Shown: positions 656 to 59,511 of the stretch, one piece after another
How positions within the stretch are numbered: position 1 is the stretch's first letter
Layout of the letters: the number at the start of each line of letters is the position of its first letter
NCBI GenBank assembly: GCA_027577415.1
Contig: JANBQS010000004.1
Location: 1-64,000 of the forward strand
Direction of reading: 5' to 3'
DNA length: 64,000 bases
Source: Coemansia sp. RSA 922
Taxonomy: Eukaryota; Kickxellomycota; Kickxellomycetes; Kickxellales; Kickxellaceae
Notes under the pieces: generated by a model
What the model saw: the letters and a program-made list of their open reading frames with translations, nothing else
The model's database searches: none
Told to the model about the DNA's origin: nothing
Program-made: the position numbers and the translations under genes

Positions 656-2332
656 TTACCCACGAACAGCATTTAGCATCCTATTGAGCTGAGGTGCGTA
701 TTTGCTATATGGACCGATCTCCAGAGCTTTAGTAATGCTAGCGATATAATGTTGAGCAGTAATTGATAAGATTTCTACCCGATTGAACTTGGGACATACC
801 AGTGCCAAGAGCAAAATATAATCAATAGTTTCAGAGGCATATTGGCGGCTATAAGAAGTCATTTTCCAAGTTTGAAAATTCAATCCTGCGTCACCATATG
901 TGGAAACCATATGGTCTGGCAGCTCTTCAATGGAAATTATTTCTAGTTCAGATCCCAGAGTCATAATGCCACTAGTAAGGTTGACAAGAACTGGAAGATG
1001 TCTTAGTAAACTCAACACTTCAAATACTGAAAGATTTTCACCACATGTGTTAAGCATTTGGATATTCTGGAATCCCTGGCCATGTTTCATAGCTGATAGG
1101 CAGACATCCATCCCCAATCCTGAAAATGTCATTATTTTAGCTGCACACATCAATTGATTCAGGAATTTGCCAATATTCACTTCAGAATTAACAGAAGTAT
1201 CCCAATTTAATGTGTGCCCATAGATAGTAACATTTTGCAAGACTTTATTTCTGTTTCCAAATGCTCGACACTTATCAAGAGTGACAAGAGTTTTATAGTT
1301 CAAATGTAATTCCAGGGACTTTAAGGTGGCAGCATTGCCTCGGAATAACACATCATCAGCAAAGGGATATGGCGCTTCCAGCTTCAAAGCGCGTAGCACG
1401 GGAAATGGTACCATATTGGTAGTCATTGTCGTTGGTCCAGGGCTGTCGTTTCTTCTTGCACTTAATTGCAAATGCTGCATACTGGGGTATACAACAGCTT
1501 CGCCCTTTGTATCATGAATTAGCAAGTTGGCGGCATCAATAGGAAATGACAAATATTGAAGTTTGCCGGCAGACTTGTGAACCAGACTTGTGTGCATGTC
1601 TAGTGATCCCTCACAGTGTATGTTAAGCCAGGTGAGTGGTGGAATGGAACCAATAGATAATAGGGGATTAATGCCAACTTTTAATAACTGCAGAAGTGCA
1701 CAATTGGTGCCAGCATAAAGCTCATCCGCAAGCACCTTCAATATATTGTCACCCAGTTCTCCATCGCCAATTTCAGGAACATCCCTTCTTGGAAATAATT
1801 GGCCATGACATGCGATAGTTACTGTAGTTGATGTTGGGGCTATTGACTTGAGTAGTTTGACAAACTCCAGAGTATTAGCAATGGCAATATCCTTAGCATC
1901 GGTGTGCTGAATCACATAGTCTGACACAATGACACAAAGTTTGTTAGCAAGTGGAAAAGCTTTAGTGTTTCCAATATAGTCCTCCAAATGTTTGTATGCG
2001 GCTCCACTAATAATACCTAACAAAGAGACTCTTACATCAACCCCTTTAACCAAATTGTTAACATAGTTTGGCAAGCAATTATATTCTTTCCAGCCTTGAC
2101 AATCGAGATGTACTTTATTACTCTCAAGATTAACGAAAAAGCCGATGTTTCTCCACAAAAGTTGAAGTGCTTCCTGTCGCCAAGCAGAGCTCACATTCAG
2201 CAACTCCTTCAGGCGTTGGACCTGACAGCTATCACCATGCAAAAGCGACCTCTTTTCTAGTGTTACCCACTTTAGTATTGAGCGTAGAACATCTACGGGA
2301 AGAGACTGAGCTGGAGACAAATGGCTGGGCAT
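656..2332 (-). CDS. F-box-like protein, expanded fungal family type
   Basis: The frame encodes about 558 residues. The start is placed at the ATG at 2332, because the residues after it (MPSHLSPAQSLPVDVLRSIL) look like an F-box-like helix: LP-x-DVL-x-IL-x-W, then a predicted helix ending SSAWRQEALQLLW. The upstream in-frame extension is Phe-rich and looks like untranslated sequence. The rest is Leu-rich without clear catalytic residues, as in F-box proteins whose C-terminal part is an irregular leucine-rich substrate-binding region. By family analogy it could be an SCF ubiquitin-ligase adaptor; the substrate is unknown. Base composition is more AT-rich than the HMG gene next door. It lies between two direct repeats, which hints that the locus was duplicated or moved. 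F-box assignment is moderate; fungal origin and coding status are firm. Confidence 0.65.
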   Translation of the reverse strand: MPSHLSPAQSLPVDVLRSILKWVTLEKRSLLHGDSCQVQRLKELLNVSSAWRQEALQLLWRNIGFFVNLESNKVHLDCQGWKEYNCLPNYVNNLVKGVDVRVSLLGIISGAAYKHLEDYIGNTKAFPLANKLCVIVSDYVIQHTDAKDIAIANTLEFVKLLKSIAPTSTTVTIACHGQLFPRRDVPEIGDGELGDNILKVLADELYAGTNCALLQLLKVGINPLLSIGSIPPLTWLNIHCEGSLDMHTSLVHKSAGKLQYLSFPIDAANLLIHDTKGEAVVYPSMQHLQLSARRNDSPGPTTMTTNMVPFPVLRALKLEAPYPFADDVLFRGNAATLKSLELHLNYKTLVTLDKCRAFGNRNKVLQNVTIYGHTLNWDTSVNSEVNIGKFLNQLMCAAKIMTFSGLGMDVCLSAMKHGQGFQNIQMLNTCGENLSVFEVLSLLRHLPVLVNLTSGIMTLGSELEIISIEELPDHMVSTYGDAGLNFQTWKMTSYSRQYASETIDYILLLALVCPKFNRVEILSITAQHYIASITKALEIGPYSKYAPQLNRMLNAVRG

Positions 2333-28152: not shown

Positions 28153-28799
28153 GTCTTTTCTTCCTTTACGCTAGTTGTTCTTTTTTTTTCTTCTCCGGTT
28201 TGCTTTGAATTTCTAAATTCAACACTGTTATTTTTTTCTTTGCCGATGTTGTTGCCGAGCTTTTGTGCGGCACGTCGCTTGTGACTGCGGGATTGTCGCC
28301 AGTCTTTCTCTTCTTCGCTTTGTGCTTCGCCTAGTTTGCTTAGCATCCTCGTCCACAAATAACCAAGTCTCGGCTTTGTACACGCTTTTTTCCATGGAAT
28401 GTTTTTTTTTTACCAAACGGCTTCTCCCGATAGTAAGGGCAACGGTGCTTACCAATTCCTTCTGGAGCTGACACATCGCGTCTTTTCTCAAAGGGGCTTT
28501 CTTGGAAGCCTTCTTCGGAGCAACAAAGTCTCACTTATAGTGCTTTCCTTGTCCACAGCGTACACTATGTTGCTTTGGCGCTTCCCGTTAAAAAGAAAGC
28601 GCCTCAAAGTAACCACTATAGAAAGTCCACTTGAAGAAAAAAAGTGTTCTTTGAAGCCGGCTCCCTTATGCTTTGTTGGCTTCACAGAGGTATAAAAAGC
28701 CAGGCAACCCCGCTGTAATTTCTCCAGTGCTTGATATACATTATCATTCAGCTTTCCAATTCTTAGCCATTAAAGTACACTTGAGCTAATACTACCACT
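28153..28799. other. Intergenic, PCNA 3' region and promoter of the small gene
   Basis: About 650 bp. T-rich 3' flank of PCNA, then sequence without a gene, then a TATA box (TATAAAA at 28691-28697) about 105 bp before the next ATG. Confidence 0.5.
28691..28697 (+). promoter_or_regulatory. TATA box of the small gene at 28800
   Basis: TATAAAA, about 105 bp upstream of the ATG at 28800. Confidence 0.55.
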
Positions 28800-29159
28800 A
28801 TGAGCAATAACAGCAACCCGAACTCTATCTTTTACATCCATGTTGGCGATGGTGCAACTACCGGTGGATTTTTCCTTATTGATCGCACCCATGTCAAGAA
28901 TGTTGATAACTTGGTTGAAGCAGAGAGAGTTGCTAGAACCATGCCTAATATCACGTTTAACGATATAAATTCAGGTAATGGAGACACTCGCATTCAGCTG
29001 GATATTGGCTTTAGGAGGATTGGCGACTCTGGTGTAATTGAGTTTATGATCGACCCTGCTTGCAAGTACATAATTGCTGGAAACAGTGCTAGTGTTGATG
29101 CCAGAATTGCAGACTTTAACATTTCTCAGTTCGATGCTATTCGTGCGAGCAATCCATAG
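28800..29159 (+). CDS. Small orphan protein, divergent fifth member of the RIQ-CKYIIAG family
   Basis: 119 residues, no signal peptide or membrane segment. It begins MSNNSNPNSIFYIHVGDGAT and contains RIQLDIGFRRI followed by DPACKYIIAG. The four tandem genes at 51.5-56 kb have RIQV-xxx-Y-x-YI ... D-xx-CKYIIAG (or CEIIVVG). The spacing between RIQ[VL] and the cysteine is exactly the same as in the 51503-51844 protein. The N-terminal pattern, a beta-like strand IFYIHVGD, also aligns with IIYVLAKED. I do not know the family; it looks like a small mixed alpha/beta cytosolic protein. It lies between PCNA and an HSF-type gene, about 22 kb from its relatives. Confidence 0.6.
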   Translation: MSNNSNPNSIFYIHVGDGATTGGFFLIDRTHVKNVDNLVEAERVARTMPNITFNDINSGNGDTRIQLDIGFRRIGDSGVIEFMIDPACKYIIAGNSASVDARIADFNISQFDAIRASNP

Positions 29160-29382: not shown

Positions 29383-29646
29383 TTATAGTTTAATGACATT
29401 ATACAATATTATAATACTTTTCAAAACCTGGAAATGCTCCAACTGCTTATCGTTCTCTACTAAATGAATGTAGCACTCTTGTAAAGGAGTAGTTGATCCA
29501 AAGTCTAGCACTGCAAGCTGACTTGACTGTAATACCTTCAGTCGCATGGCGCTTTTCCTTCCAACAAAACGTACTTGTGTAAGAGGGCAATGTGCATTCA
29601 TTATTGCAGGAAGAAAGGACGTGGTTGACGTTATGGTCGCCGACAT
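29383..29646 (-). CDS. Possible small OB-fold protein (TEN1/RPA14-like?), model uncertain
   Basis: From the ATG at 29646 the frame gives 87 residues: MSATITSTTSFLPAIMNAHC, then LTQVRFVGR, LQSSQLAVLDFG and QECYIHLVE. This is reminiscent of the first strands of a small OB fold such as TEN1 or RPA14. A CAG-GTTTTG near the C-terminal end might be a donor, so the last residues could belong to an intron. Similarity is by pattern only. It could also be chance, or the antisense of another frame. The opposite strand carries a 61-codon open frame that I do not call. Confidence 0.28.
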   Translation of the reverse strand: MSATITSTTSFLPAIMNAHCPLTQVRFVGRKSAMRLKVLQSSQLAVLDFGSTTPLQECYIHLVENDKQLEHFQVLKSIIILYNVIKL

Positions 29647-29915
29647 GGAGAACAAAAACAAAGCGAATACAAAAAGTGAAATACAAAGCAAAGGATTAAG
29701 CGACGACGATGAGGTAGATATATCGCAGTAGCTGAATATCTAAAATTTAATAGAGCTGGCAAAACCCTCAAACACATTATAGGCTACAATTGTCGAGCGC
29801 TATTTGACTTGAATAGTCGACTACTCGTTCATGACAAGTAATGTAAAGTTATTGAGAATATGTTCCAATATTGATAAATAAATATATTGTTGCCGTGGAT
29901 AGTAGTGAAGAGCAT

Positions 29916-45691: not shown

Positions 45692-46510
45692 CTATGTTCT
45701 TGACGAACTGGCAGTTGTCTCCTTTGCTCCAGACTGCGGAGTCTGTTCCTCGAGTACCGGGTTGACGATATTGTTAATCCTAGGATAACTAGCCTTTTCA
45801 TCCAGCTGTTCCTGAGTCCACGCCAACAACTGCAACAACGCCGGCAGTTTAGGTTCCCTTGGCTGACTATGAGCCGCCAACAACGCGGCATTAAGTTCGT
45901 TAGCCGTCTTCTGCCTATGAGCAAAATCCAACAACTCAGCCAACGGTGACCTAGCACTAGCGTCAAACGCCAATAACGCCATAGTCTTCTCCAACTCCCT
46001 CAACAGTTCAGGATGTTCCTCGCCGTGAGGCGCCAATTCGTCCTGCGCAAACTCCAACGCCTCCTCAGCCTTCCCCTGTCTGATAAGCTCAATTAGGTGT
46101 TGCTGCTGTAGGTGAAAGTATAAACGTGGGTCGGTATCCAAAAGGTCAGGGTTTAGGTCGTTGACTCGCTCTATTGCTGTTTTGATATCGCCGTTTTGTA
46201 CCGCTACTCGTATCTGCATTCGCTCATCTATCGAACCCAAGTCTACGCTAGAATGTAGGCCGCTCTCTTCGCTGAACTTTTCTGCTGCGTCCTTGTACCC
46301 CTCGATAATAAGATAGTTCATTATCAGTTGGTTCAAGTCACTACAGGGCAACATATTTTTGTAGTTAGTTACGTGTACTTTTTAGAGAACACATAATTCT
46401 TCCTTTCTTTCTTTTTTATCTTACCTTTTGGCAATCGGCACCTCTGCCATTTTTCCCTCCCATTCTTCGAGCGAGATATTTTGTTTCGCATTTGACGATG
46501 ACGTAGTCAT
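45692..46510 (-). CDS. GID8: GID8/TWA1 homologue, GID/CTLH E3 ubiquitin ligase scaffold (two exons)
   Basis: Exon 1 is 46425-46510 (MTTSSSNAKQNISLEEWEGK); the 83-nt intron has donor GTAAGA at 46424 and acceptor CTGTAG ending at 46341; exon 2 is 45692-46340. The join reads VPIAK-SDLNQLIMNYLIIEG, reconstituting the LisH motif (about 31-63). CTLH follows (about 70-125, DERMQIRVAVQNGDIKTAIE), then CRA (YFHLQQQHLIELIRQGKAEE, LLAFDASARSPLAELL). The length of 244 residues suits Gid8 (about 228-250 in many species). The GID/CTLH complex ubiquitinates gluconeogenic enzymes and other targets; Gid8 is a core scaffold. A single-exon reading from the ATG at 46354 would break LisH. Confidence 0.95.
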
Positions 46511-46644
46511 GTTATATAATATGATACTAATAATAATATTAATAATAATACGAATTGGAATTTTAGCGAGGAGAGAAGAGGAGGAGGGGAAACGCACTTT
46601 AATCCTCAGAACCCCTACCAGAGAATGTAAAAGTGATCTCGTGA

Positions 46645-48423
46645 TTACATGATCTGTGCCATTTCCCAAGTATTGCCGCTAATCAAGTTCAATCTCGACT
46701 CGCTTGCAACTCCGGTCCCGTCGTCTCTATATACATCCGCCAGGCCCTCGGGGATCTCGTCGGTGCTGCTTACGGGCAAAATATGGTGCAACGGAATGTT
46801 TCTAATGAACAGACAGATGATACATGCCAGCGCAGCAAACGGCACATCAACGACAAACACCAAGTGTAGTGCCCTGACAATACCCTTGTATAGAGGCTCG
46901 GACATGGACTGAGGCAAAAGACTAATCAGTGGAGACAAACTTCCAATCGCCACTGTATCATGGCCCGCTCCACCTCCACCAGACATAAAATCAAGGAATG
47001 CCGAGAACGACTCGCGTACTGTAATCGCCAATCTCTCCTTCATAATGACTTCGCCGATAACCAGCCCAATCATTCCGCCCAATGTCCGTGCATAGTCGAT
47101 TAGCGTAGTTACCGTGGATATCTCGTTAGCTGGTAGTCCCGCTTGGCTGGCAAGCAGAACCTGCTGCATGCAAAACCCAAGTCCCAGTCCAATTATTACT
47201 TGGAATCCAGCGTGCTTGGTAGATTCAGCAGGGTCGCGAGGCCACGTATACATCAGTATATAGCCCACCGTCATCAGCGCAGTACCCGATACAGCCCATT
47301 CGCGGTAATAGACGCGTCCGCGGAAGCTTACTAGACCACCCGCAACAACAGCACCGATACAGCCGCCGAGCGTAAACCACAGAATATGTATCGAAGCCGG
47401 AAGTGGTTTCTGCGCAAGTACCATTTGATAGTACATTGGCACAAATATAACCATGCCATACATACAGAGCCCGATGAAAAACGACGCGATAATAGTCAGC
47501 AATGTACGAGGTCTCGCCAGCAAGTGCAAGGGGATGATTGGCCATTTAGCGAATTTGCCCTCGATAGCTCCGAATATAGCCATTACCAAGAATCCAAACA
47601 CAAACAGACATATGATTAGCACCGAGTCCCACGCATACTCATTGCCACCCCACGATAACGCCAACAAGATCATCGTACTGCCGCCCAGCCAGAAGAGTGT
47701 ACCCAAATAATCAAATTCGCGCAGCTTACGCGCAGTCCGACCAGGAGGTGTTGGCAGATCGTGCAGAGTAAAATAGAGAATGGCCAACGCCAGCGCGCCA
47801 ATAGGCAAGTTCATAAACCCGACCCAGCGCCAATTATTATTGGCAAAGAACGCAGCCCCGATAACAGGACTAGTCCAAGTAGCCAGTATAATAACCGCGC
47901 CCAACATTCCCATGTAAAAGCCACGCTGGCCCGGCGTCAAAATATCGGTGAGAACAACTAGCGCCAGGGGCATCATCCCTGCGCCACCCACACCCTGTAG
48001 GGCTCGTCCCACGCACATGACAATCATGCTATTCGAGACTGCCACCATTGTCGAAAACGCCATGAATAGAAGAATGGAAAAGAAAAGGGGCCACTGGCGT
48101 CCGAGTTTTTCTGCCAGTTTCACCCAAATGGGCTGCAGCATAACGCAGGGCAAGAGAAACGAGACCGCCATCCACTGCGCAAATATTTCTGTGTTAAAGT
48201 CCTTTTTCAAGTCGTCCAGTATCAGGTTAAACATCGTCTCTGCCCCACAGACCATGAACATCGCTAAGGAGAGGCCAAGAAACGTCAGTACTGCTTTCCA
48301 TACCGGCCACTGCGCCTGACCCAAGAGATTGAAGCTCCGGTTTCGCTCAAAGTCCACCGCCTCGCTTCGAGATCTGAAGCGAACGAGCTTTGCCTGACCT
48401 GGTTGGAGCTCTGCTGCCGCCAT
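46645..48423 (-). CDS. MFS multidrug/H+ antiporter, DHA2 14-TM type (paralogue 1)
   Basis: 592 residues from the ATG at 48423 (MAAAELQPGQAKLVRFRSRS). Upstream in-frame sequence is Phe-rich leader. About 14 hydrophobic segments begin near residue 65. The antiporter motif C region reads GRALQGVGGAGMMPLALVVL, followed by DILTPGQRGFYMGMLGAVII; a motif A-like turn RxxYREW lies after helix 11. The LLGQAQWPVWKAVLTFLGL entry is shared by all three paralogues here. The DHA2 family expels small toxic compounds across the plasma or vacuolar membrane; the substrate is unknown. The three paralogues are on one strand within 12 kb, with small-protein genes between the second and third. Confidence 0.9.
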   Translation of the reverse strand: MAAAELQPGQAKLVRFRSRSEAVDFERNRSFNLLGQAQWPVWKAVLTFLGLSLAMFMVCGAETMFNLILDDLKKDFNTEIFAQWMAVSFLLPCVMLQPIWVKLAEKLGRQWPLFFSILLFMAFSTMVAVSNSMIVMCVGRALQGVGGAGMMPLALVVLTDILTPGQRGFYMGMLGAVIILATWTSPVIGAAFFANNNWRWVGFMNLPIGALALAILYFTLHDLPTPPGRTARKLREFDYLGTLFWLGGSTMILLALSWGGNEYAWDSVLIICLFVFGFLVMAIFGAIEGKFAKWPIIPLHLLARPRTLLTIIASFFIGLCMYGMVIFVPMYYQMVLAQKPLPASIHILWFTLGGCIGAVVAGGLVSFRGRVYYREWAVSGTALMTVGYILMYTWPRDPAESTKHAGFQVIIGLGLGFCMQQVLLASQAGLPANEISTVTTLIDYARTLGGMIGLVIGEVIMKERLAITVRESFSAFLDFMSGGGGAGHDTVAIGSLSPLISLLPQSMSEPLYKGIVRALHLVFVVDVPFAALACIICLFIRNIPLHHILPVSSTDEIPEGLADVYRDDGTGVASESRLNLISGNTWEMAQIM

Positions 48424-48953
48424 AAATGTAGCTGTGTGTATGTCGTTCGTCGCCCACAACAGAAAATGGATAGAAAATAAGAAAATAAAAAGAAAAGATG
48501 GAAATGAAAAAGAGATGAGAGAAAGAAACATGTGTGTTTTGGTGCTGTGGCGAGGAAAGAGAAAAAAAGGTTTTTTTTTTTCTTATCCATTGTGCTAACT
48601 TAGTGGGAATATTTATGCACAGTAACTTTCTTCGTGTATTCACAAAAGCAGTCTCCCTGCCGCCATTGTCTCGTTTGCAACAAATAAACTCGCGCATTGG
48701 TTAGGCGACCTACTTCTAGAAGCAGTAACACACAGAATAGCATACAACGTTTTTAGAAAATGTGGAAAGAAATGCAGCCACTTTTATGATGTAAGCGGGT
48801 GTGGGAATACATATGCATATCTGCATGCAACAGTGGCCAACACAGAATTAAGGTTTGCCATGACCACCAACAGGTATGCTATAGATTGAATTAGTAAACA
48901 TGGTCTGTTTAAGGGAATGCTAGTTTTAAAAAGAATGACTGATATAAAAAATT
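48424..48953. other. Intergenic between MFS paralogues 1 and 2
   Basis: 530 bp, AT-rich; promoter of paralogue 1 and 3' flank of paralogue 2. No gene seen. Confidence 0.5.
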
Positions 48954-50699
48954 TTACGCGCTTGAAACGTCGGTTTCTTCTTTTCCGTGCAAGTCGACCA
49001 AGCCCTCGGGGACCTCTTCTGTGTTGTTAACGGGCAAAATGTGGTGCAATGGAATGCTGCCAATAAATAGGCAAAGAAGACAAGCCATCGCAGCAAACGG
49101 CACATCAACGACAAAGACCAAACGCAGTGCCTTGACAATACCCTGGTACAAGGGCTCAGACATGGCTTGTGGCAACTTGCTAAGCATGGGCGCCATGGAC
49201 TGTAGCGCAACCACGTCCTGCCCTTCAAGAGGTGCCGAACCGATAAAGAAGGAGAACGATTCACGAACCGTGGCAAACATCTTCTCCTTCAGGATGACTT
49301 CTCCGACAACGAGTCCAATCATACCGCCCAATGTGCGTGCATAGTCGATTAGCGTAGTTACCGTTGAGATTTCGTTAGCTGGTAGTCCTGCTTGACTGGC
49401 AAGCAGAACCTGCTGCATGCAAAAGCCTAGTCCGAGGCCAACGAGTACCTGGAATCCCGCATGTTTAGCGCTCTCCGTAGTGTCGCGAGGCCAAGTATGC
49501 ATTAGGCCATACCCAATAGCCATGAGTCCAGCTCCTAAGACTGCCCACTCGCGATAGTAGACACGACCACGGAAGCTCACCAAGCTGCCAGCAACAACTG
49601 CACCGATACAGCCGCCTAACACGCACCAGAGGATGTACTTGGTCGAACCGTACGCTCCCTCAGCCATGACCATGACGTAGTAAATAGGCACAAACATAAT
49701 CATGCCATACATGCAAAAGCCAATAAAGAACGACGCGACGATAGTCAACAGCACGCGGGGCTGTATAAGCAAGTGCAAGGGAATAATCGGCCATTTGGCA
49801 TACCTGCCTTCAATAACGCCGAATATCAAGATAGCGACGAGTCCAAAAGCAAACATACACGCGATGAATGCCGAGCTCCAGGGATGCTCGTTACCGCCCC
49901 ACGAGAGCGCCAGCAAGATCATCAGACTACCGCCCAGCCAGAAAAGTGTTCCCAGATAGTCGAACTCGCGCAGCTTCCGGCTGAGGCGACCCGGAGGCGT
50001 TGGTAGGTCGTGCAAAGTAAAATAAAGTATACTCAAGGCGACAGCGCCAATAGGCAAGTTCATATACCCAACCCAGCGCCAAGTGGACCGCTCGAGAAAC
50101 GCGGCACCTACAATCGGTCCAGTCCATTTGCCCAAGATAATAACAGCGCCTAGTAGTCCCATGTAAAAGCCGCGCTGTCCGGGAGTCAAGATGTCGGTAA
50201 GCACGACCAGGCTTAGTGGCATCATTCCGGCGCCACCCACGCCCTGGAAGGCGCGGCCCACGCACATGACGACCATGTCCTTGGAGGCAGCGACCATAAT
50301 GGAGAATACCATGAATATGAGAGTAGATATAAAGAGCGGCCACTGGCGTCCAAACTTCTCGGCCAACTTTACCCAAATGGGCTGCACCATGACACACGTA
50401 AGCAAGAACGAGGCTGACATCCACTGAGCAAAGATTTGAGTACCAAACTCTTTCTTTATGTCGCCTATAATCTGGTTAAAGCTGGTCTCAGCGGCACAGA
50501 CTATGTACATCACTAGCGACAGGCCCACAAACGTAAGGCTGCTCTTCCATAGCGGCCACTGGGGCTGGCCGAGGAGGTTGTGTCCCTTGTTCCGCTCAAA
50601 GTCAATAGCCGTCCTGCCAAGCACAGGAGCTCTCGCGGGGTGCCCTTTGTCCGTTTGCGTGTCCTCCGCCGAAGCAGTGGTGTGCATATCGTCGGTCAT
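48954..50699 (-). CDS. MFS multidrug/H+ antiporter, DHA2 14-TM type (paralogue 2)
   Basis: 581 residues (MTDDMHTTASAEDTQTDKGH). About 14 hydrophobic segments. Shares GRAFQGVGGAGMMPLSLVVL, LTPGQRGFYMGLLGAVIILG and YYREWAVLGAGLMAIGYGL with its neighbours. It contains the conserved ending pattern LPVNNTEEVPEGLVDL. It is closer to paralogue 1 than to paralogue 3 by eye, and has an almost identical DNA patch with paralogue 1 (49325-49420 against 47077-47170). It likely exports small molecules; the substrate is not shown by sequence. Upstream lie 800 bp of non-coding DNA and then the small-protein array on the same strand. Confidence 0.9.
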   Translation of the reverse strand: MTDDMHTTASAEDTQTDKGHPARAPVLGRTAIDFERNKGHNLLGQPQWPLWKSSLTFVGLSLVMYIVCAAETSFNQIIGDIKKEFGTQIFAQWMSASFLLTCVMVQPIWVKLAEKFGRQWPLFISTLIFMVFSIMVAASKDMVVMCVGRAFQGVGGAGMMPLSLVVLTDILTPGQRGFYMGLLGAVIILGKWTGPIVGAAFLERSTWRWVGYMNLPIGAVALSILYFTLHDLPTPPGRLSRKLREFDYLGTLFWLGGSLMILLALSWGGNEHPWSSAFIACMFAFGLVAILIFGVIEGRYAKWPIIPLHLLIQPRVLLTIVASFFIGFCMYGMIMFVPIYYVMVMAEGAYGSTKYILWCVLGGCIGAVVAGSLVSFRGRVYYREWAVLGAGLMAIGYGLMHTWPRDTTESAKHAGFQVLVGLGLGFCMQQVLLASQAGLPANEISTVTTLIDYARTLGGMIGLVVGEVILKEKMFATVRESFSFFIGSAPLEGQDVVALQSMAPMLSKLPQAMSEPLYQGIVKALRLVFVVDVPFAAMACLLCLFIGSIPLHHILPVNNTEEVPEGLVDLHGKEETDVSSA

Positions 50700-51502
50700 G
50701 GCTCAAAATAGTGCAAAAAATAATAAAAGTGCAAAAAAATAATAATAACAGGTAGGAGTGGGGAAGAAGTTGCATTGTTTTTTTTGGCGGCACGGCGTGC
50801 ATCAAACACGTTCAATGTGGTTAGTTAGTTGCCACAACAATGCTACAAAGGAGCAGTAGCACCAGTGGTAAAGAAGGGCGAGGATCCCTCAACTCTCCCC
50901 CTTGATTTTTTTACATAGCCAGCCAGCCATACATGCACATGGTAAATCTCAACCTTTTTTCTAAACAGGTTTGATTTGCAATTAGAGACCACCGTATTGG
51001 TTGCACTGGTCTCAATAGGTAGTAAGGTAGGAATGGTGAGGTGCAGGGTGCTCCTTTTGTATCCCCCTGTCACATTGGCAAGAAGGTGTCACTTGCAGAC
51101 CTGGCCCCTACTTTGGGAGAAGAGTGCTCCAGTGTCTGAATTGCTGTAGGACATGTTTGGTAAATCCAAAGGTGCTCGTGACTGCAAAAAAGGAGGGGCT
51201 TCTTTTACAATGCTGCATCTGACAAAAAATTGCAGTTTTTCTTTCAAGCTACTAGTTTTTATTTCATTGAAAGTGTGTGTCTATAAAAACAGTACTCTTT
51301 GTAGCTTATTCTGGTAGCCACTATTCGGTGAGAACAAGCAGGTATTCAGAATTAGTGCCAGAATTAGTGCCAGCGTCGATGGTCTAGCGAGAACTTGAGC
51401 GCCTGGCTAGTAGGCAAACAGGAGCACGGCATGTGTTTTTGTAGTCAGGAATCACTAGATTATTTTTTAAGTGTAGATGTACTTACCATCGGCAATATTC
51501 AT
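50700..51502. repeat. Intergenic with first copy of the array flanking repeat
   Basis: MFS paralogue 2 promoter near 50,700-50,900. From about 51,130 to 51,385 the sequence is homologous to 52,380-52,610, 53,950-54,180 and 55,305-55,545. All share GCTCCTGAACAGG-like DNA and a GTGCCAG-GTCGATGGT-like end. No gene. Confidence 0.55.
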
Positions 51503-51844
51503 CTACACTTCACTCCTACACGCCCGGATAATATCACCAGGTGTATAGCACATGAGCGCTATATCACTTGGTTTTCCAGCAATTATATACTTACATGTAA
51601 TATCAACATCTGCGTTCTCCTTATTCAACTCCTTGATATACTCGTAATTGCTGTTTACCTGAATACGCCTAATTTGTACTAAATCACTCTGTACGAATGA
51701 AAGGTATGTATGAATATCACCAATTGTTTTCTCTTTTTCCAACACTTCGTCATATTTTGGATTGTCACTAAGTTTTAGTATAGAGGGTGTCACCGTAAGA
51801 TCCTCTTTTGCAAGGACGTATATTATTTCACCTTCTTTTGGCAT
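51503..51844 (-). CDS. Small-protein tandem family member 1 (RIQ-CKYIIAG type)
   Basis: 113 residues from the ATG at 51844 (MPKEGEIIYVLAKEDLTVTP). The longer frame upstream starts at a TTG inside a promoter-like GA-rich tract and is not used. It has no membrane segment or signal peptide. Conserved positions in the family are IIYV-x-AKED-x-TV at the start, YLSFVQSDLVQIRRIQV, NYEYIKELN, and D-x-x-CKYIIAGKPSDI. It closely matches member 4 (55608-55985), whereas members 2 and 3 match each other. No domain known to me fits; predicted fold alpha/beta. The (GA)n tract just upstream, at 51914-51932, is shared by all four copies. Confidence 0.68.
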   Translation of the reverse strand: MPKEGEIIYVLAKEDLTVTPSILKLSDNPKYDEVLEKEKTIGDIHTYLSFVQSDLVQIRRIQVNSNYEYIKELNKENADVDITCKYIIAGKPSDIALMCYTPGDIIRACRSEV

Positions 51845-51913
51845 AGTAATACTCGTCTGTGTGGGAATGGCAAAATTTTGTAAAATAGGGGAAATGTTAT
51901 GTTGAAGTGGAAA

Positions 51914-51932
51914 AGAGAGAGAAGAGAGAGAG
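51914..51932. repeat. (GA)n tract before family member 1
   Basis: GA-rich tract (TC-rich on the gene strand) 70-90 bp before the start of member 1. Equivalent tracts precede members 2, 3 and 4. Confidence 0.7.
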
Positions 51933-52041
51933 GTGGGAGTGGAAGGGCTTTTATTCTTTTCAAGAGTTGGGGAAGCGCCCTGCAAGGTAGTTCCTCCCCA
52001 AAGGACATGAGCTACTTATCCAAAAGAAACACCCTATGTAA

Positions 52042-52606
52042 GAGGAAATGCAAAAAGGAGGCTTCACCTTTGCCATTACAAAAAGGCGTCCTTTTTGTAA
52101 TAAGCACACCCCCAACCAAAGGTGAGTTTTTGGGGCATTTCTTGGAAGAGCAGTTGCAATGGCTGATGTAGTCCCCTTTAAAGCTGCGATTGATGCGCTC
52201 CTAAGTGCTGGCATGATAGGTAGGGGTGGTGAACCATTTTCCGCTGCAGAATCCAGCTCAACAGTGCATCAAGTGAGGTAACAACACTACCAACAATGCT
52301 TGCACGCACTTCCAACCTTGCGAGCAAAACTTCCAATACATTTTTGGACAGGGCGCCCAAAGCAAGACTTTTCAGTTTGTAGGATGCTCCTGAACAGGTT
52401 TGGCCGAAAAGGGTGGTCGAAACTGCAAAAGATAGGGGGGCTTTTTTAACAATACTGCAGCTGTCAAAAATTTCAACTTTCTTTTAAACTACTTGCATTC
52501 TCAACGTTGAAAGTATATTTTTTCAAGAAAAAAGTGCTACGCAAAACTCTGTTTAAAGAAAACATGCAGGTACTTGGTGCTAGTGCCAGTGTCGATGGTT
52601 AAGCAA
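52042..52606 (+). repeat. Direct repeat, copy 1, with internal hairpin
   Basis: About 565 bp nearly identical (strongest over the first 480 bp) to 53618-54180, 1,576 bp away in the same orientation. It contains a perfect 12-bp stem: ATTACAAAAAGG at 52075-52086, loop CGT, CCTTTTTGTAAT at 52090-52101. An outer TCACCTTT/AAAGGTGA pair surrounds it. Open frames inside are short and change frame between copies, so I do not call a gene. Confidence 0.8.
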
Positions 52607-52932
52607 GCCCTTAGATATGTGGCCTGTTTCCAAGCACGAGTGGTAAGTCTGAGTAGCACCACTTACGTTGTATGTTACCTCCAACTTTTGTCAAAAAAAG
52701 ATATACTATTCATAACTATTGTTAAATATCTCTTTTGTCCCTCGGTACCATTGTCATATGTCTTGACTCGGCTCAGTTCCGTTCTCACGGTTCACTGGTT
52801 TGTTTGGCACTTTGGATATAGTGCGTGTTTGACCGGTTAACCTCTTTCTTCTTTTTCTTTAACCTTTCCAATATTAATTTTATTGACACTTAAGCTTTTA
52901 ATAAGCTACGCTAGTTCACTCCGCTCTAAAAT

Positions 52933-53343
52933 CTAATAACTATAGAAGATTTCTGATATATTGACTTTGCTACCCGCAGGTTCTGGAATAAAGGTAACAT
53001 TTTCCTTTCCTCTACGACATTTTCCACTTAACTTTTCGGGACTCCAGCACAAAACATTTATATCACCCTCTTTCCCAACAACTATGATCTCACATGCATC
53101 ATCAATAGCCGAGACCTCATCATTCAAGTCCTTTATATAAGTGTAATTTCTGCTGACCTGGATATGCCTAATATTTAGGCCATATTCTCTGAGAATCTTA
53201 TAATGTGCGACCATTTGAGTAAATCGGCTTTCTTGATTTAGTAAATCACCATATGTTTTTACATGCTCGCGTGATATCAGAGCTGTTTCTACTGTGCAAT
53301 CTTCCTTTGCGTGTATGTATAGTATTAAACCGTCCCTAATCAT
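52933..53343 (-). CDS. Small-protein tandem family member 2
   Basis: 136 residues from the ATG at 53343 (MIRDGLILYIHAKEDCTVET). Shares the family pattern: ILYI-x-AKED-x-TV, RHIQVSRNYTYIKDLN, D-x-x-CEIIVVGKEGDINVL. The C-terminus extends about 20 residues beyond the other members (ENVTFIPEPAGSKVNISEIF). Members 2 and 3 have almost the same 5' flank just before the ATG (GCCGACGCTCGCTTATGTAT). A (GA)n tract lies at 53437-53454. Function unknown. Confidence 0.68.
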   Translation of the reverse strand: MIRDGLILYIHAKEDCTVETALISREHVKTYGDLLNQESRFTQMVAHYKILREYGLNIRHIQVSRNYTYIKDLNDEVSAIDDACEIIVVGKEGDINVLCWSPEKLSGKCRRGKENVTFIPEPAGSKVNISEIFYSY

Positions 53344-53436
53344 GCCGACGCTCGCTTATGTATAAATATCTGAATAGTACTTTCTATTAGGGAAAACAGG
53401 TATGTGGAGTAAAGAATATACTGAGCTGTAATAGTT

Positions 53437-53454
53437 AGAGAGAGAGAGAGAGAG
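53437..53454. repeat. (GA)n tract before family member 2
   Basis: About nine GA units roughly 95-110 bp upstream of the start of member 2. Confidence 0.7.
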
Positions 53455-53617
53455 GCGGGTGGGGGGCCTTTTATTCTCCTCAAGAGTTGGAAAAGTGCTA
53501 GAATAATAAAGGGGTTGGAATAGGGCTAGGAAACTGTTGTAATTATTCGCTAAGATGTGACGTGCAATGAGGTTCCTCCCCAAAGAGCATGCATCACTCA
53601 TTGAAAATCTGACGTAG

Positions 53618-54180
53618 GAGGAAGTGCAAAAAGGAGGCTTCACCTTTGCCATTACAAAAAGGCGTCCTTTTTGTAATAAGCACACCCCCAACCAAAGGTG
53701 AGTTTTTGGGGCATTACATGGAAGAGCAGCTGCAATGGCTAATGTAGTCCCCTTTAAAGCTGCGATTGATGCGCTCCTAAGTGCTGGCATGATAGGTAGG
53801 GGTGGTGAACCATTTTCCGCTGCAGAATCCAGCTCAACAGTGCATCAAGTGAGGTAACAACACTACCAACAATGCTTGCACGCACTTCCAACCTTGCGAG
53901 CAAAACTTCCAATACATTTTTGGACAGGGCGCCCAAAGCAAGACCTTTCAGTTTGTAGGATGCTCCTGAACAGGTTTGGCCGAAAAGGGTGGTCGAAACT
54001 GCAAAAGATAGGGGGGCTTTTTTAACAATACTGCAGCTGTCAAAAATTTCAACTTTCTTTTAAACTACTTTTATTCTCAACGTTGAAAGTATATTCTACA
54101 ATAAAAAAGTGCCACGCAAAACTCTGTTTGAAGAAAGCATGCGATTATTCAGTGTTAGTGTCAACATCAATGGTTGAGAA
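53618..54180 (+). repeat. Direct repeat, copy 2, with internal hairpin
   Basis: Second copy of the repeat at 52042-52606, with the same hairpin at 53651-53662 and 53666-53677. It is interposed between members 2 and 3 of the small-protein family, so each unit of the array comprises gene plus flank. Confidence 0.8.
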
Positions 54181-54259
54181 GGTCCATAGGAGTGTGTTCA
54201 GTTGTCTAGCACCACAGCACAAGTGCCATGTTACCACTGGCCCTTGCTAAAGAGACGTA

Positions 54260-54625
54260 CTATTCTGGAGTATAGGTAACATTACCTACTCCCATAGTGC
54301 ATTTCTCTAATAACTTTTTGGGACTCATAAACAATACATTTATATCGCCCCCTTTACCAACAACAATAATTGCACATGCATCATCAACAGCCGAGACCTT
54401 ATCATTCAGCTCGCTAATATAAGTGTAATTTCTGCTGACCTGGATATGCCTCATCAGTTGGCCATGTTTTTCGAGAAAATCTTGATGCTCTGCTATTTGA
54501 GTATATTGTTTTTCCTGTTCTTTCATAGTAGCATAGGTTTTTATGAGTTCCCGTGATATCAGAGCTGTTTGGACTGTGCAATCTTCCTTTGCATAAATGT
54601 ATAGTATCAAACCGTCCCTAATCAT
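54260..54625 (-). CDS. Small-protein tandem family member 3
   Basis: 121 residues from the ATG at 54625 (MIRDGLILYIYAKEDCTVQT). Very similar to member 2 in residues 1-100: RHIQVSRNYTYISELN and D-x-x-CAIIVVGKGGDINVL. Its C-terminal tail is shorter (KCTMGVGNVTYTPE). The 5' flank resembles that of member 2; a (GA)n tract is at 54724-54742. Function unknown. Confidence 0.68.
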   Translation of the reverse strand: MIRDGLILYIYAKEDCTVQTALISRELIKTYATMKEQEKQYTQIAEHQDFLEKHGQLMRHIQVSRNYTYISELNDKVSAVDDACAIIVVGKGGDINVLFMSPKKLLEKCTMGVGNVTYTPE

Positions 54626-54723
54626 GCCGACGCTCGCTTATGTATAAATATTTGAGTAGTACTTTCTATTATAGAGGGCAAGTATGTGGCAAAGAATATA
54701 ATTGTAAAACAAGAAGAAAAGAA

Positions 54724-54742
54724 GAGAGAGAGAGAGAGAGAG
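54724..54742. repeat. (GA)n tract before family member 3
   Basis: About nine GA units, 100-120 bp upstream of the start of member 3. Confidence 0.7.
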
Positions 54743-54779
54743 GTGAATGAAAAGGCAGTTTCTCAATTAAAAAGTGGGT

Positions 54780-55560
54780 GAAGCGTCCAGCAAAGTGGTT
54801 TTTTAAAAAAAACCCCTAGCCATGGAGACAATGCCAAAGGCCACTTTACCCTTTTCAGCGTAAAATGGCAGACTTTAAAAACAAGCACACCCCCAACCAA
54901 AGGTAGATTTTTGGGGGTATTCAATGGAAGAGCAGTTGCAAAGGCAGGCCTGTCCCCTTTTTAGGCTAAGCAAGTGGAGGGTGTGCTGTAAAATTTTTAT
55001 TGAAGTATCACAAATGTGCACAGCGTCAGCATTGCAACATATCCAAGTAAATCATATTGAGGGTAGCGTTCTCGCCTCTCTACCAAACCCAGTGGCAGGC
55101 GGACTATGTGAGGCGCAAGGCAGCTCTGCTAATGATTGACTGGCTCAAGAGGCAAAACATATAGCACTCACCACTCTCACTGTACACGTTGACGGGTGCT
55201 ACAATGCATGCACTCTTAGGTACCGACTCCATAGGCAAAAGTGATAGTACAACTGCAGCTATAACAAGTTCAGCAGTGCATCACGTGCGACTTGGCCATT
55301 TTCAAAATGCTCCTGAACAGGTTTGGCCGAAAAGGGTGGTCGAGACAGCAAAAAAAGAAGGAGCTGTTTTTACAATACCGCAGCCAACAAAAGCTGCAGT
55401 TTTTGTATTTGAGCAAAGTGTACTATTTACCATTGAAATTATGTTCTACTGAAAAAGCACTGCATGAAGTTCAATTTGAAGGCCTTTATTTGATGAAAAC
55501 ATGTGGTTATTCCGTATTAGGGTCAGCATCGATGGTCTAGCGAGTCCCTGGGCATGTGGC
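54780..55560. repeat. Degenerate third copy of the array flank
   Basis: Contains the shared CACACCCCCAACCAAAGG core (about 54,886-54,903) without the hairpin. At 55,305-55,545 it carries the GCTCCTGAACAGGTTTGGCC block and its downstream part. No convincing gene; an open frame at 55189-55452 on the plus strand falls within this repeat DNA. Confidence 0.55.
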
Positions 55561-55607
55561 CAAATGTCGAGCATGAGCACCACATGTAATTTAGGTATTT
55601 GTCACCC

Positions 55608-55985
55608 TTAGCTCAAGTATATAATATTGGGATAACTTAACCACTTCTCACACGCATAGGCTAAGTTGCCAGGTGTGCTGAGCAAGAGCTTTATGTCACT
55701 TTCTTTTCCAGCAATTATATACTTACAATTATCATCTACATCTGGGTTCTCCTCATTAAACTTAAAATACTCGTACTTCTTGTTTACCTGAATACGCATA
55801 ATTTGTACTAAATCACTCTGTACAAATGAAAGGTATGTGTGAATATCATCAATTGTTTTCTCTTTTTCCAATACTTTGTTATATGTTGACTTCTTACCAA
55901 GTTTTAGTATAAATGGTGTCACTGTAAGATCCTCTTTTGCAAGGACGTATATTATTGCTCCCTTTTTCAGCTTATTGGCGCACAT
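55608..55985 (-). CDS. Small-protein tandem family member 4
   Basis: 125 residues from the ATG at 55985 (MCANKLKKGAIIYVLAKEDL). Closest to member 1: LAKEDLTVTPFILKLG, IHTYLSFVQSDLVQIMRIQV, NKKYEYFKFNEENPDVDDNC, KYIIAGKESDIKLLLSTPG. The longer upstream frame covers GA-rich leader and is not used. A (GA)n tract is at 56048-56070. With the members in the order 1-2-3-4, the similarity pattern is A-B-B-A, which points to a duplication of two genes or to a later B duplication inside an A pair. Confidence 0.68.
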   Translation of the reverse strand: MCANKLKKGAIIYVLAKEDLTVTPFILKLGKKSTYNKVLEKEKTIDDIHTYLSFVQSDLVQIMRIQVNKKYEYFKFNEENPDVDDNCKYIIAGKESDIKLLLSTPGNLAYACEKWLSYPNIIYLS

Positions 55986-56490
55986 TTGTGTAGGAATAAA
56001 AAATTTGCACAAAATAGAAAATATGTCTATTTGAAGTGGAAGAGAGAAGAGAGAGAGAGAGAGAGAGAGGTGATGGGACAGGGCATTTAGTATTCCCAAG
56101 TGCTGAGGAAGCGCCCTGCAAGGTAGGTTCTCTTCAAAGAACATGCGCTACTCGTCTTTAAGAAATGCCCAACACAGGAAAAATGCCAAATGTGACTTTA
56201 CCTCCTTTTCCGCTCAACTGAACATACTTTGACAGCAGCCTAAAAGGGGCCAAGTCTGCCTTTGAATGTTCTCTTCCATGGAATGCTCCCTAAAACTCAC
56301 TTGGTTGGGGATGTACATGTTTTTAAAAAAAAAAAAAAAAGTGCTCCTTATTGCTAAGGTAAAAGTGGAGACATTGTAGAGCAGGAAATTTTTCTTGCCC
56401 AATTTCCCTACTTCTCAAGTCTCTATTTTAATTAGATTCTAAAGTAGAATTACTAAGGCAATTCTTACTAGCTGGCTTATTTCTATTGAT
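55986..56490. repeat. Intergenic with an inverted fourth flank copy
   Basis: Contains the (GA)n tract (56048-56070). It also holds, in opposite orientation (about 56,220-56,310), a diverged copy of the flank with CCCCAACCAAGTGAG on the minus strand. No gene. Confidence 0.5.
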
Positions 56491-58224
56491 TTACATATTT
56501 CTATCATCTCTTTTGTTCAGTTCTGTCATGTCGTCCGAGGCCTCGTCAATGCTACTTGTGGACAAAATGACATGAAGCGGGATATTGGATATCAGGAGGC
56601 AAAGAATACAAGCCAACACAGCAAATGGCACGTTGACGACAAAGACCAAGTGCAAGTCTTCGACAATACCCTTATACAGCTGCTCTGACAATGCCAGTGG
56701 CAAGGTCTTAAGCAACGGAGCCAATGATTCGAGCCAAACTGCATCTAGGCCCTTCAGAGACTCTGATCCGAATAGTATAGGAAACGACTGGTGAACAGTA
56801 GTAAACATCTTTTCTCTCATTATTATCCCACCAATAGCCAACCCAATCATTCCGCCTAGTGTGCGAGCGTAATCAATCAGAGTAGTCACAGTGGATATTT
56901 CTCTAGCTGGCAGCCCGGCTTGACTAGCAAGTCGCACCTGCTCCATGGAAAATCCCAATCCCAGGCCAACTAGTACTTGGAATCCGGCATGTCTAAGGGT
57001 CGCAGTAGGACTGCGTGGCCAAGTGTACATCAATATATAACCTACTGACATTAATGCTGTTCCGAGGACTGACCATTCGCGGTAATATACTCGGCTGCGA
57101 AAGGTCACTAGATAACCAGCGACAACCGCACCGATGAATCCACCAAGTGCGCACCACAAGATGTGCTTTGCAGCAGAAAGCGGACCTTCTACCTCGAGCA
57201 TCAAGTAATATATAGGCACAAATGTAATGGTGCCGTACATGCACAGCCCAATAAAGAATGAGGCGAGGAGAGTGAGCAATGTCCGCGGCTGTACAATGAC
57301 TGATAGGGGAACTATAGGCCAACTCGAGTATCTGCCCTCAATAACCCCAAATATGAGCATAGCCACTACTCCAATTATTAATGGAACAATTATAAAAGCA
57401 GAGCTCCATGGGTGCTCGTTACCGCCCCAAGTAAGTGCTAGCAGAATCATTAGACTGCCTCCTAGCCAGAATATAGTTCCAATATAGTCAAAGTCGCACA
57501 AAGTTCGCGCAAGTTGTCCAGAAGGCTTTGGCAAGTCACGAAGTGTATAATACAGAATTGATAGTGCCACTGCGCCAATTGGCAAGTTCATATATCCAGT
57601 CCAACGCCAGCTGAATTGTTCGAGAAGAACAGCGCCAATGATCGGACCAGTCCATTTGCCAAGAATAATAACGGCGCCAAACAAACCCATGTAAAACCCG
57701 CGCTGCCGTGGAGTCAAGATATCAGTTAACATAACAGATGCTAGTGGCATCATCCCAGCGCCTCCAACGCCTTGTAATGCGCGACCCACACACATGACAA
57801 TCATGCTACGTGACAGGGCAACCATGACAGAGAATGCCATGAATATGAGAATAGAAAAGAGAAGCAGCCATGTTCGACTAAATCGCTCTGTCAGTACAAC
57901 CCAGATGGGTTGTACAATGGTGCACGTTAAGAGAAATGATGCGCCCATCCACTGAGAGAATATTTTGGTGTTAAACTCTTGCTTCAAATTACCTAAGCTC
58001 TGGTTGTAAACAGTTTCGGCAGCACATACCATATACGCGACCAACGATAAGCCCACAAATGCCAAGAGCGTTTTCTTTAGCGGCCACTGAGGTTGGCCCA
58101 GTAGATTGATATCCATGTTTTGCTCATAGTCGACCACTGGCCTGCCTAGTAAGTTGGTGTGAGCGAGTCTCTCTTTTCCTATATGCTGTGCTGCCATATC
58201 CGTGTCATTGTTGCTACTCATCAT
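56491..58224 (-). CDS. MFS multidrug/H+ antiporter, DHA2 14-TM type (paralogue 3)
   Basis: 577 residues from the ATG at 58224 (MMSSNNDTDMAAQHIGKERL); one codon upstream is a TTG. Fourteen hydrophobic segments, with GRALQGVGGAGMMPLASVML, TDILTPRQRGFYMGLFGAVI and YYREWSVLGTALMSVGYIL. It is the most diverged of the three and has lower GC. Orientation and position beyond the small-protein array suggest that the array arose within a once-continuous MFS cluster. Substrate unknown. Confidence 0.9.
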   Translation of the reverse strand: MMSSNNDTDMAAQHIGKERLAHTNLLGRPVVDYEQNMDINLLGQPQWPLKKTLLAFVGLSLVAYMVCAAETVYNQSLGNLKQEFNTKIFSQWMGASFLLTCTIVQPIWVVLTERFSRTWLLLFSILIFMAFSVMVALSRSMIVMCVGRALQGVGGAGMMPLASVMLTDILTPRQRGFYMGLFGAVIILGKWTGPIIGAVLLEQFSWRWTGYMNLPIGAVALSILYYTLRDLPKPSGQLARTLCDFDYIGTIFWLGGSLMILLALTWGGNEHPWSSAFIIVPLIIGVVAMLIFGVIEGRYSSWPIVPLSVIVQPRTLLTLLASFFIGLCMYGTITFVPIYYLMLEVEGPLSAAKHILWCALGGFIGAVVAGYLVTFRSRVYYREWSVLGTALMSVGYILMYTWPRSPTATLRHAGFQVLVGLGLGFSMEQVRLASQAGLPAREISTVTTLIDYARTLGGMIGLAIGGIIMREKMFTTVHQSFPILFGSESLKGLDAVWLESLAPLLKTLPLALSEQLYKGIVEDLHLVFVVNVPFAVLACILCLLISNIPLHVILSTSSIDEASDDMTELNKRDDRNM

Positions 58225-58533
58225 CAACTATTGATACAAGTGAAAGACCAAAAAAAAAAAAAGAATAGGTGTAAAAAAAAAGTAACAAGATGGAAAATTC
58301 GGTATTGTATCACAGGAATCCTACTCAATCTGTCATGGATGGGCATATGACCTGTTCATGGCGGAGCGCCACCAATTAGCAAATCACATAATCAGACTCC
58401 CAAATAGTGGCTCATGCAAATACGTGGTGATGGTAATAGTGATGTAGACTGGAAAAATTAGTATTAGTATAGCATAGATTGAAAAAGAGACAATAAAAAT
58501 CGCATCATTTACACAAAGCGAAGGGATAAGAAT

Positions 58534-59511
58534 CTACTCCTTCTTGGACTTGGGCTCAGGCAGGATGAAGAACTGGTAGACAAAGATACCCAGGACAGCG
58601 CCAACAAAGGGCATAGTGAGAGGAACCCAGAAGTAGTGGCCGCCGAAAGTGAAGGGGTCGCTGCCGTAGAGAATAGTGGAGAAGACACGAGGTCCAAAGT
58701 CACGAGCAGGGTTGATAGCGTAGCCAGTGACCCATCCAGTACAATTGCCGATGGCAAACACCAGCAGACCAATGGCAATAGGCAAATGGTGCTTGGCGGG
58801 TGTCAGACGGTCGTCGCCAATCGAGTAAATGACAAAGAGCAGGACGGCGGTGTTGACAATCTCCGAGAAGGCCGAGAAGAACTTGCCGTTACCAGGCTTG
58901 GCATACGTGCACCAGATACCACCAGTACCCTGAGGACCCATAAGCTGGCGGTTTCCACCGTCGAACTCGTCGAACTGATCCCTGAAGATGCCGTAGAGCG
59001 TAGCAGCGGCGACAAAGGCACCCAGGAACTGAGCGAGCATGTAGCCGGGGACCTTGCGCCAAGAGAACTTGCCAAAGAGAGCATTGGCAAAAGTAACAGC
59101 CGGGTTCAAGTGTCCACCAGAGACACCCATGCAGCAGTAAAGAGCCATGGCGAGACCGATACCCCAGCCGAAAGTGATAGCCAGGTACGCGGAAGCAGCA
59201 TTGGTAGTGTTGAAAGTCACCGTAGCAACGACACCGTCGCCAAAGAGGATCAGAAGGAAGGTACCCCAGAACTCGGCAAAGTAGTCACGGAAGCGGTACC
59301 GCAGGTTGTACAGCGGCCAGTTGGTCGGGTCGTACATGGGGTGCATGGCGAGGACCTCAGGAAGCTCGTAGTCGGCGGCCTGTGGGATGGCTATCTCGTG
59401 CTCGGGCAGCATGACGACCTTGGGGTGCTCGTGGTACCTAGCGTTACCGTCTGGCCGCTCGCTCGCCACATAGTACTGGTCGGCGCGACCATGAGGTTCT
59501 GCCGAGGACAT
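58534..59511 (-). CDS. Aquaglyceroporin (MIP family)
   Basis: 325 residues with an 80-residue hydrophilic N-terminus and six membrane helices plus two half-helices. NPA motifs are intact at 136-138 (GGHLNPAVT) and 267-269 (GYAINPARDFGPR). Asp271 after NPAR is the aquaglyceroporin signature, so glycerol or other small polyols as well as water are expected to pass. The FAEFWGTFLLILFGDG start of helix 1 and GCTGWVTGYAINPARDFGPR-type end are usual fungal forms; here the former is at about 78-93. It probably sits in the plasma membrane and acts in osmotic adjustment. A TATATAAAG element lies about 320 bp upstream. High GC in the third position suggests high expression. Confidence 0.95.
   Translation of the reverse strand: MSSAEPHGRADQYYVASERPDGNARYHEHPKVVMLPEHEIAIPQAADYELPEVLAMHPMYDPTNWPLYNLRYRFRDYFAEFWGTFLLILFGDGVVATVTFNTTNAASAYLAITFGWGIGLAMALYCCMGVSGGHLNPAVTFANALFGKFSWRKVPGYMLAQFLGAFVAAATLYGIFRDQFDEFDGGNRQLMGPQGTGGIWCTYAKPGNGKFFSAFSEIVNTAVLLFVIYSIGDDRLTPAKHHLPIAIGLLVFAIGNCTGWVTGYAINPARDFGPRVFSTILYGSDPFTFGGHYFWVPLTMPFVGAVLGIFVYQFFILPEPKSKKE

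What the first reader, a model, noticed from the sequence alone, without database searches (positions are those of the whole stretch)
51500..55985. Undescribed tandem family of ~115-135 residue proteins in an MFS cluster
Four minus-strand genes (51503-51844, 52933-53343, 54260-54625, 55608-55985) share a fixed pattern: [IL]YV-x-AKED-x-TV, R-x-IQV-xxx-Y-x-YI, D-xx-C-[KEA]-[YI]-I-[IV]-x-G-K. There is no signal peptide, membrane helix or domain I recognise. Similarity is A-B-B-A (1 with 4, 2 with 3). They lie between DHA2 exporters on the same strand. This is seen directly; a role in export, immunity-like self/non-self recognition or a small-molecule response is only speculation.
Basis: partly seen in the sequence, partly recalled or inferred. 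Interest (0 to 1): 0.8.

Follow-up and report, generated by a model that had tools for sequence, protein, structure and literature searches.

The report
Fast-evolving ubiquitin-fold mini-protein family in Coemansia
Four neighbouring genes in a Coemansia-like fungus encode small proteins that probably fold like ubiquitin but lack its attachment tail; they are one local branch of a family scattered over dozens of places in the same genome, often in the same neighbourhoods as a large F-box-like gene family, and their function is not yet known.

Summary
The four genes are real and pair A-B-B-A (70% and 66% protein identity within pairs, about 33% between). They are not a stand-alone tandem family: a profile of 33 dispersed relatives without any window sequence ranks these four, and an unreported fifth window gene (28800-29159, +), first among 421 window ORFs. 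The genome (20.4 Mb; Coemansia by nearest proteins) holds 49 places. Three protein searches found five relatives, four of them Coemansia. Two AlphaFold models (pLDDT 85 and 82) suggest a beta-grasp, ubiquitin/PB1-like fold, without significant Foldseek hits. No family library recognises them; PB1 hallmarks are absent and none of 22 aligned members ends in Gly-Gly. Coding is supported (dN/dS 0.34-0.64; significant in three of four window comparisons). Gene 2-3 replacements concentrate in the helical segment. About 400 bp upstream of genes 1 and 2 are 98-100% identical although the genes are not. Dispersed members often lie near F-box/LRR-like genes, partly a shared-compartment effect; no co-divergence was seen. 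The MFS neighbours look incidental. Most likely these are lineage-restricted intracellular protein-interaction modules, perhaps linked to SCF-type recognition. The mechanism is inferred, not shown.

The parts
51503..51844 (-). gene 1 (type A), 113 aa, predicted beta-grasp protein
52933..53343 (-). gene 2 (type B), 136 aa, predicted beta-grasp protein
54260..54625 (-). gene 3 (type B), 121 aa; structure modelled (pLDDT 84.9, pTM 0.80)
55608..55985 (-). gene 4 (type A), 125 aa, predicted beta-grasp protein
28800..29159 (+). fifth member of the family in the window, 119 aa, with a TATA-like box (gtataaaaag, 28690-28699) about 105 bases upstream of the ATG
29522..29728 (+). possible decayed sixth copy (weak profile match, E 0.026)
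52038..52480 (.). spacer upstream of gene 1; 98-99% identical to the spacer upstream of gene 2 over two ungapped stretches; matches found only in this cluster
53614..54056 (.). matching spacer upstream of gene 2
51914..51933 (-). CT-rich tract (GA on + strand) upstream of gene 1; similar tracts at about 53437-53455, 54716-54743 and 56040-56070 upstream of genes 2-4
656..2332 (-). F-box/LRR-like protein of the genome-wide family that often neighbours the dispersed relatives (not beside the four genes)

Best explanation
The four genes are a local, recombining branch of a family of small beta-grasp (ubiquitin/PB1-like) proteins known so far almost only from Coemansia. They act as intracellular, non-conjugated protein-interaction modules: a conserved beta-sheet scaffold (invariant E in the helix, C at the start and G at the end of strand 5) carries surfaces that differ between copies, mainly the helical segment in genes 2/3 and the loops plus C-tail in genes 1/4. 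The most likely job is binding other intracellular proteins. Because dispersed relatives often lie in the same neighbourhoods as members of a very large F-box/LRR-like family, the partner is plausibly the SCF ubiquitin machinery or its targets, with the small protein as adaptor, decoy or substrate. Shown by computation: family membership, dispersal, selection for protein sequence, near-identity of upstream spacers. Predicted: the fold. Inferred only: intracellular location, the interaction role and the SCF link. My confidence is about 0.95 for the family, 0.75 for the fold, 0.5 for a non-conjugated interaction module and 0.25 for the SCF link.
Confidence: 0.5

Rival explanations
1. Lineage-specific family that drifts by duplication in dynamic regions, under modest constraint, with no single shared role; its neighbourhood with F-box and kinase genes reflects only the compartment.
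For: Kinases of the FunK1 block are also near F-box genes; no co-divergence; dN/dS of some pairs near 0.8-0.9; possible decayed copy at 29522-29728 and two places with an in-frame stop.
Against: Pooled pN/pS 0.34 with p 3e-13; E, C and G invariant in 22 of 22; no replacement in strand 5 over 60 codons of 12 young pairs.
Confidence: 0.25
2. Selfish or incompatibility pairs: small protein as toxin or recognition tag, neighbouring F-box protein as antidote that sends it to the SCF ligase, as in Caenorhabditis klmt-1/kss-1.
For: Repeated neighbourhood with a large, diverse F-box/LRR-like family, some pairs divergently transcribed; a published precedent with F-box antidotes from a family of 560 genes (PMC12680543, passages read).
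Against: No co-divergence of pairs; the four window genes have no scored F-box place within 6 kb; most scored F-box places have no small gene near them; the F-box match itself is below Pfam's cut-off; no toxicity data.
Confidence: 0.1
3. Stand-alone relatives of Crinkler (CRN) ubiquitin-like header domains used as effectors.
For: CRN headers are described as ubiquitin-like, with earlier signal-peptide calls ruled out by one study (PMC5289972, passages).
Against: No Crinkler match in Pfam for 15 of 15 members at E<=10 nor in the genome, though that search had no positive control; no second domain: members are 104-144 aa with the start codons I chose.
Confidence: 0.05
4. Accessory proteins of the DHA2 exporters (export, immunity or small-molecule response).
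For: Position between MFS genes on the same strand.
Against: MFS and small genes are not duplicated together; relatives elsewhere have other neighbours.
Confidence: 0.05

Closest known systems
PB1 domains of plant ARF/Aux-IAA proteins (best VIA-align rows in both models)
   Different: No conserved lysine in strand 1, no OPCA core (1 of 22), no Pfam PB1 hit, stand-alone proteins
Ubiquitin and UBL domains (USP15/USP4 DUSP-UBL, ISG15, HOIL-1L)
   Same: Same fold class in Foldseek and VIA lists
   Different: No C-terminal Gly-Gly in the 22 aligned members; two helical segments and a helical C-tail; 3-16% identity in the ubiquitin-like rows shown
DIX domains (Dvl, Axin, SOSEKI)
   Same: Beta-grasp rows in the same lists
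   Different: No sequence similarity found; polymerisation not tested
Crinkler ubiquitin-like header
   Same: Ubiquitin-like fold (paper passages)
   Different: No sequence match and no effector domain
KSS F-box antidotes with linked toxins (Caenorhabditis tropicalis)
   Same: Large, fast-evolving F-box family with linked partner genes is the analogy (passages)
   Different: Toxins there derive from a tRNA synthetase subunit; pairing, toxicity and degradation are untested here

Membership tests
PB1 domain | Conserved lysine in strand 1 | tested here: not met
   Alignment columns 20-25 hold K/R in 0-1 of 22 members; column 19, just before the strand, in 8 of 22; definition from PMC7051960 passages
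PB1 domain | OPCA core D-x-D/E-x-D/E | tested here: not met
   1 of 22 members
PB1 domain | Beta-grasp fold | tested here: inconclusive
Conjugated ubiquitin-like modifiers | C-terminal Gly-Gly | tested here: not met
   None of the 22 aligned sequences ends in GG
Conjugated ubiquitin-like modifiers | Ubiquitin-like fold | tested here: inconclusive
   Predicted models only
Crinkler (CRN) proteins | Sequence match to the Crinkler header (PF20147) | tested here: inconclusive
   0 of 15 members at E<=10; 0 in the genome, but nothing rang in the controls either
Crinkler (CRN) proteins | C-terminal effector domain | tested here: not met
   Members are 104-144 aa and show no second domain
Toxin with F-box antidote | Tight linkage to an F-box gene | tested here: inconclusive
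   12 of 39 clusters within 3 kb; weaker with the fuller control; not seen at the four window genes
Toxin with F-box antidote | Cognate co-divergence of the pair | tested here: not met
   Mantel r 0.07, p 0.38, 7 loci; a small test
Toxin with F-box antidote | Toxicity and rescue by degradation | not testable with these tools
   Needs experiment
F-box proteins (the neighbouring family) | N-terminal F-box above Pfam cut-off | tested here: not met
   Sub-threshold matches only: E 0.031 and 0.051 in 2 of 5 proteins

The most novel reading that the evidence does not exclude
An early-diverging fungus runs a genome-wide, rapidly renewing recognition network in which dozens of ubiquitin-fold mini-proteins (tags, toxins or decoys) are read by hundreds of F-box/LRR-like receptors of the SCF ligase, a fungal counterpart of plant self-incompatibility or nematode toxin-antidote loci.
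Probability: 0.1. Interest if true: 0.85.

Novelty: new variant of a known kind. Interest (0 to 1): 0.5.

Why it matters
If the fold is right, this is an expansion of stand-alone ubiquitin-fold proteins that no family library used here contains and of which three searches of a very large protein set found five. Its neighbourhood with an F-box-like family of 548 candidate places makes a concrete question testable: whether Kickxellales evolved an SCF-based recognition or conflict system. It also shows that a tandem cluster read in isolation can be the visible tip of a dispersed family.

Tried and rejected
MFS-linked function: rejected as above. Transposable element as carrier of the units: the spacer of gene 1 matched only within this cluster (that search skips very common words). 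A second copy of the region, for an empty-site comparison: none found; window 45692-50699 and 56491-59511 matched only themselves and the tandem MFS genes. Viral origin: best viral structure match E 0.11 for gene 3's model; no phage match for gene 3's protein at E<=1. Relatives with solved structures by sequence: none credible. Co-divergence with F-box genes: not found. Positive selection in the helical segment: suggestive, not significant (p 0.08). Literature, listings only: Coemansia with genome and F-box (2 papers, neither on this by title), Coemansia and Kickxellomycotina gene families (15 of 3,837 listed), Coemansia/F-box/lineage-specific/orphan/FunK1 (10 of 590 listed), ubiquitin-like/F-box/Zoopagomycota (4 listed). 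None of the rows shown describes this family by title or abstract start. Open-access papers only. DIX/PB1 polymerisation papers were seen as a listing.

Rows dropped. Profile: 33 of the 36 dispersed sequences put into that script; 3 (L037, L064, L075) were dropped by its motif filter; 22 of 41 rows kept after removing rows 80% or more alike; 117 of the 123 F-box rows (second pieces of a gene left out), 77 of 115 kinase rows and 50 of 68 RRM rows; only 117 of 548 F-box candidates had been scored by the tool. The kinase rows left out included six that lie about 1.9 kb from an F-box place (C5, C26, C31, C66, C198, C257); the one at C66 matches FunK1, C5, C31 and C26 are its relatives, C198 and C257 were not tested. 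One search adds 37 of the 38 omitted kinase rows; 11 of them lie within 3 kb, several being pieces of one gene, so the 12 of 138 there overcounts the control. Near-duplicate contigs were not removed on either side.

Full report
What is there. The four minus-strand ORFs are present at the stated coordinates, 113-136 aa, each one open frame. Genes 1 and 4 are 70% identical and genes 2 and 3 are 66%; between the pairs identity is about 33%. The duplicated unit is larger than the gene: upstream spacers are shared too, and all four genes have a CT-rich tract (GA on the + strand) between 55 and 118 bases upstream of the ATG (my reading).

They belong to a dispersed family. Searching the window's own genome (20.4 Mb, 960 contigs) with gene 3 found the four genes and four weak places, E 0.008-0.06. 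Using one of the weak places as query (P0005) gave 50 matches, which I count as 49 places because two pieces at C894 belong together; five are in the window and two carry an in-frame stop. A second member as query gave 46 matches, all at places already listed. The decisive test is: a profile of 33 dispersed members without any window sequence ranks, among 421 window ORFs of 60 residues or more, the ORF at 28785-29156 (E 5e-16) and then genes 1, 4, 3 and 2 (2e-10, 2e-9, 4e-8, 4e-8); the next row is 0.026 and the best of 20 shuffled sets is 0.15. The fifth gene reads 28800-29159 (+), 119 aa. The 0.026 row (29522-29728) lies beside it and may be a decayed copy. In a 41-row tree the four window genes and P0011 form a fully supported branch; the fifth gene falls with the dispersed members on a long branch whose place is unsure.

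Taxonomic reach. Three searches of about 5.8 billion proteins returned, in all, three Coemansia sp. S17 entries (one partial), one partial from Coemansia sp. RSA 2531, and P0011, 60% identical to gene 3, from a source labelled lgn on a 988-base contig without an organism name. That the window comes from Coemansia or a close relative is inferred from these hits. The tool finds only relatives that share short words, so wider reach is not excluded.

Coding and selection. Nei-Gojobori dN/dS is 0.64 (1-4), 0.52 (2-3), 0.48 (1-2) and 0.34 (3-4). A one-sided Fisher test of silent against replacement changes gives p 0.08, 0.01, 0.002 and 0.0002. Over 11 of the 23 dispersed pairs, pooled pN/pS is 0.34 (p 3e-13); single dispersed pairs run from 0.10 to 0.91, and one pair (C66-C26a) has no silent change. 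So the proteins are maintained, but loosely. Elements were mapped through the alignment onto the P0009 model; the helical segment is its residues 40-63, both helices and the link to strand 3. Between genes 2 and 3 replacements concentrate there (29 of 66 sites against 28 of 221 elsewhere, p 2e-7; site numbers approximated from averages) while silent changes do not (p 0.39). The excess of replacement over silent change in that segment is not significant (p 0.08). Between genes 1 and 4 the pattern is the reverse: the segment is conserved (3 of 67 against 46 of 202, p 0.0004) and loops and C-tail vary.

Recombination. Upstream of genes 1 and 2 about 400 bp are 98-100% identical (a fifth 100-bp window 94%) although the two genes are only 55% identical in DNA. 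The spacer matched nothing outside the cluster. A recent exchange or duplication of upstream DNA, independent of the coding parts, is the simplest reading; which one is not shown.

Neighbours. In 38 dispersed loci, most with 1.5-kb flanks, single-linkage BLAST grouped 28 neighbouring open frames into one F-box/LRR-like set; several loci overlap and some frames may be read-through, so these are not independent genes. Pfam's F-box models match only below cut-off, in 2 of 5 proteins tested. The genome has 548 candidate places for this family, of which the tool scored 117. Twelve of 39 small-gene clusters lie within 3 kb of a scored F-box place against 1 of 125 control clusters. With kinase rows first left out, the control is counted as 12 of 138, an overcount (p 0.001), because kinases of the FunK1 block also sit near F-box genes. 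In four loci the small gene lies between a FunK1-type kinase and a DUF4246 gene (one kinase and one DUF4246 gene tested by Pfam; the others joined by BLAST). Distances between small proteins and between their adjacent F-box proteins do not correlate (Mantel r 0.07, p 0.38, 7 loci). So there is a shared dynamic compartment and perhaps a functional link, but no evidence of fixed cognate pairs. The four window genes have no scored F-box place within 6 kb; they sit between tandem MFS genes, with an aquaporin-type gene beyond the third, in a region whose flanks have no second copy in the genome.

Verdict. I hold the family secure, the fold likely, an intracellular interaction role plausible and the SCF link a lead. 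The KSS F-box antidotes of Caenorhabditis tropicalis (passages read) are an analogy, not a match.

Noticed in passing
window 656-2332 (-) and genome-wide: Very large F-box/LRR-like family: 548 candidate places, 117 scored in this genome; F-box match below Pfam's cut-off.
   Followed up: partly
L009-L012 (C5, C31, C66, C26): A block of FunK1-type kinase, small beta-grasp gene and DUF4246 gene occurs in four places.
   Followed up: partly
window 29522-29728 (+): Possible decayed copy of the family beside the intact gene at 28800.
   Followed up: no
G000 contigs C772/C764, C317/C391, C148/C51, C521/C396, C235/C549, C574/C613: Kinase matches come in equal-scoring or nearly equal-scoring pairs on different contigs, suggesting a partly doubled (heterozygous, hybrid or duplicated) assembly; no second copy of the finding's flanks was found.
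   Followed up: partly
window 2803-7134 (-): 1443-aa ORF with five HMG-box stretches passing the threshold on their own.
   Followed up: no
window 16172-17353 (-): Repeat-rich Pro/Ser/Val protein whose reading contains a run of unknown bases and seems to go on in another frame, so its repeat number is unsure.
   Followed up: no
window 52075-52101 and 53651-53677: 27-base inverted repeats with 12-base arms around three central bases in the near-identical spacers.
   Followed up: no
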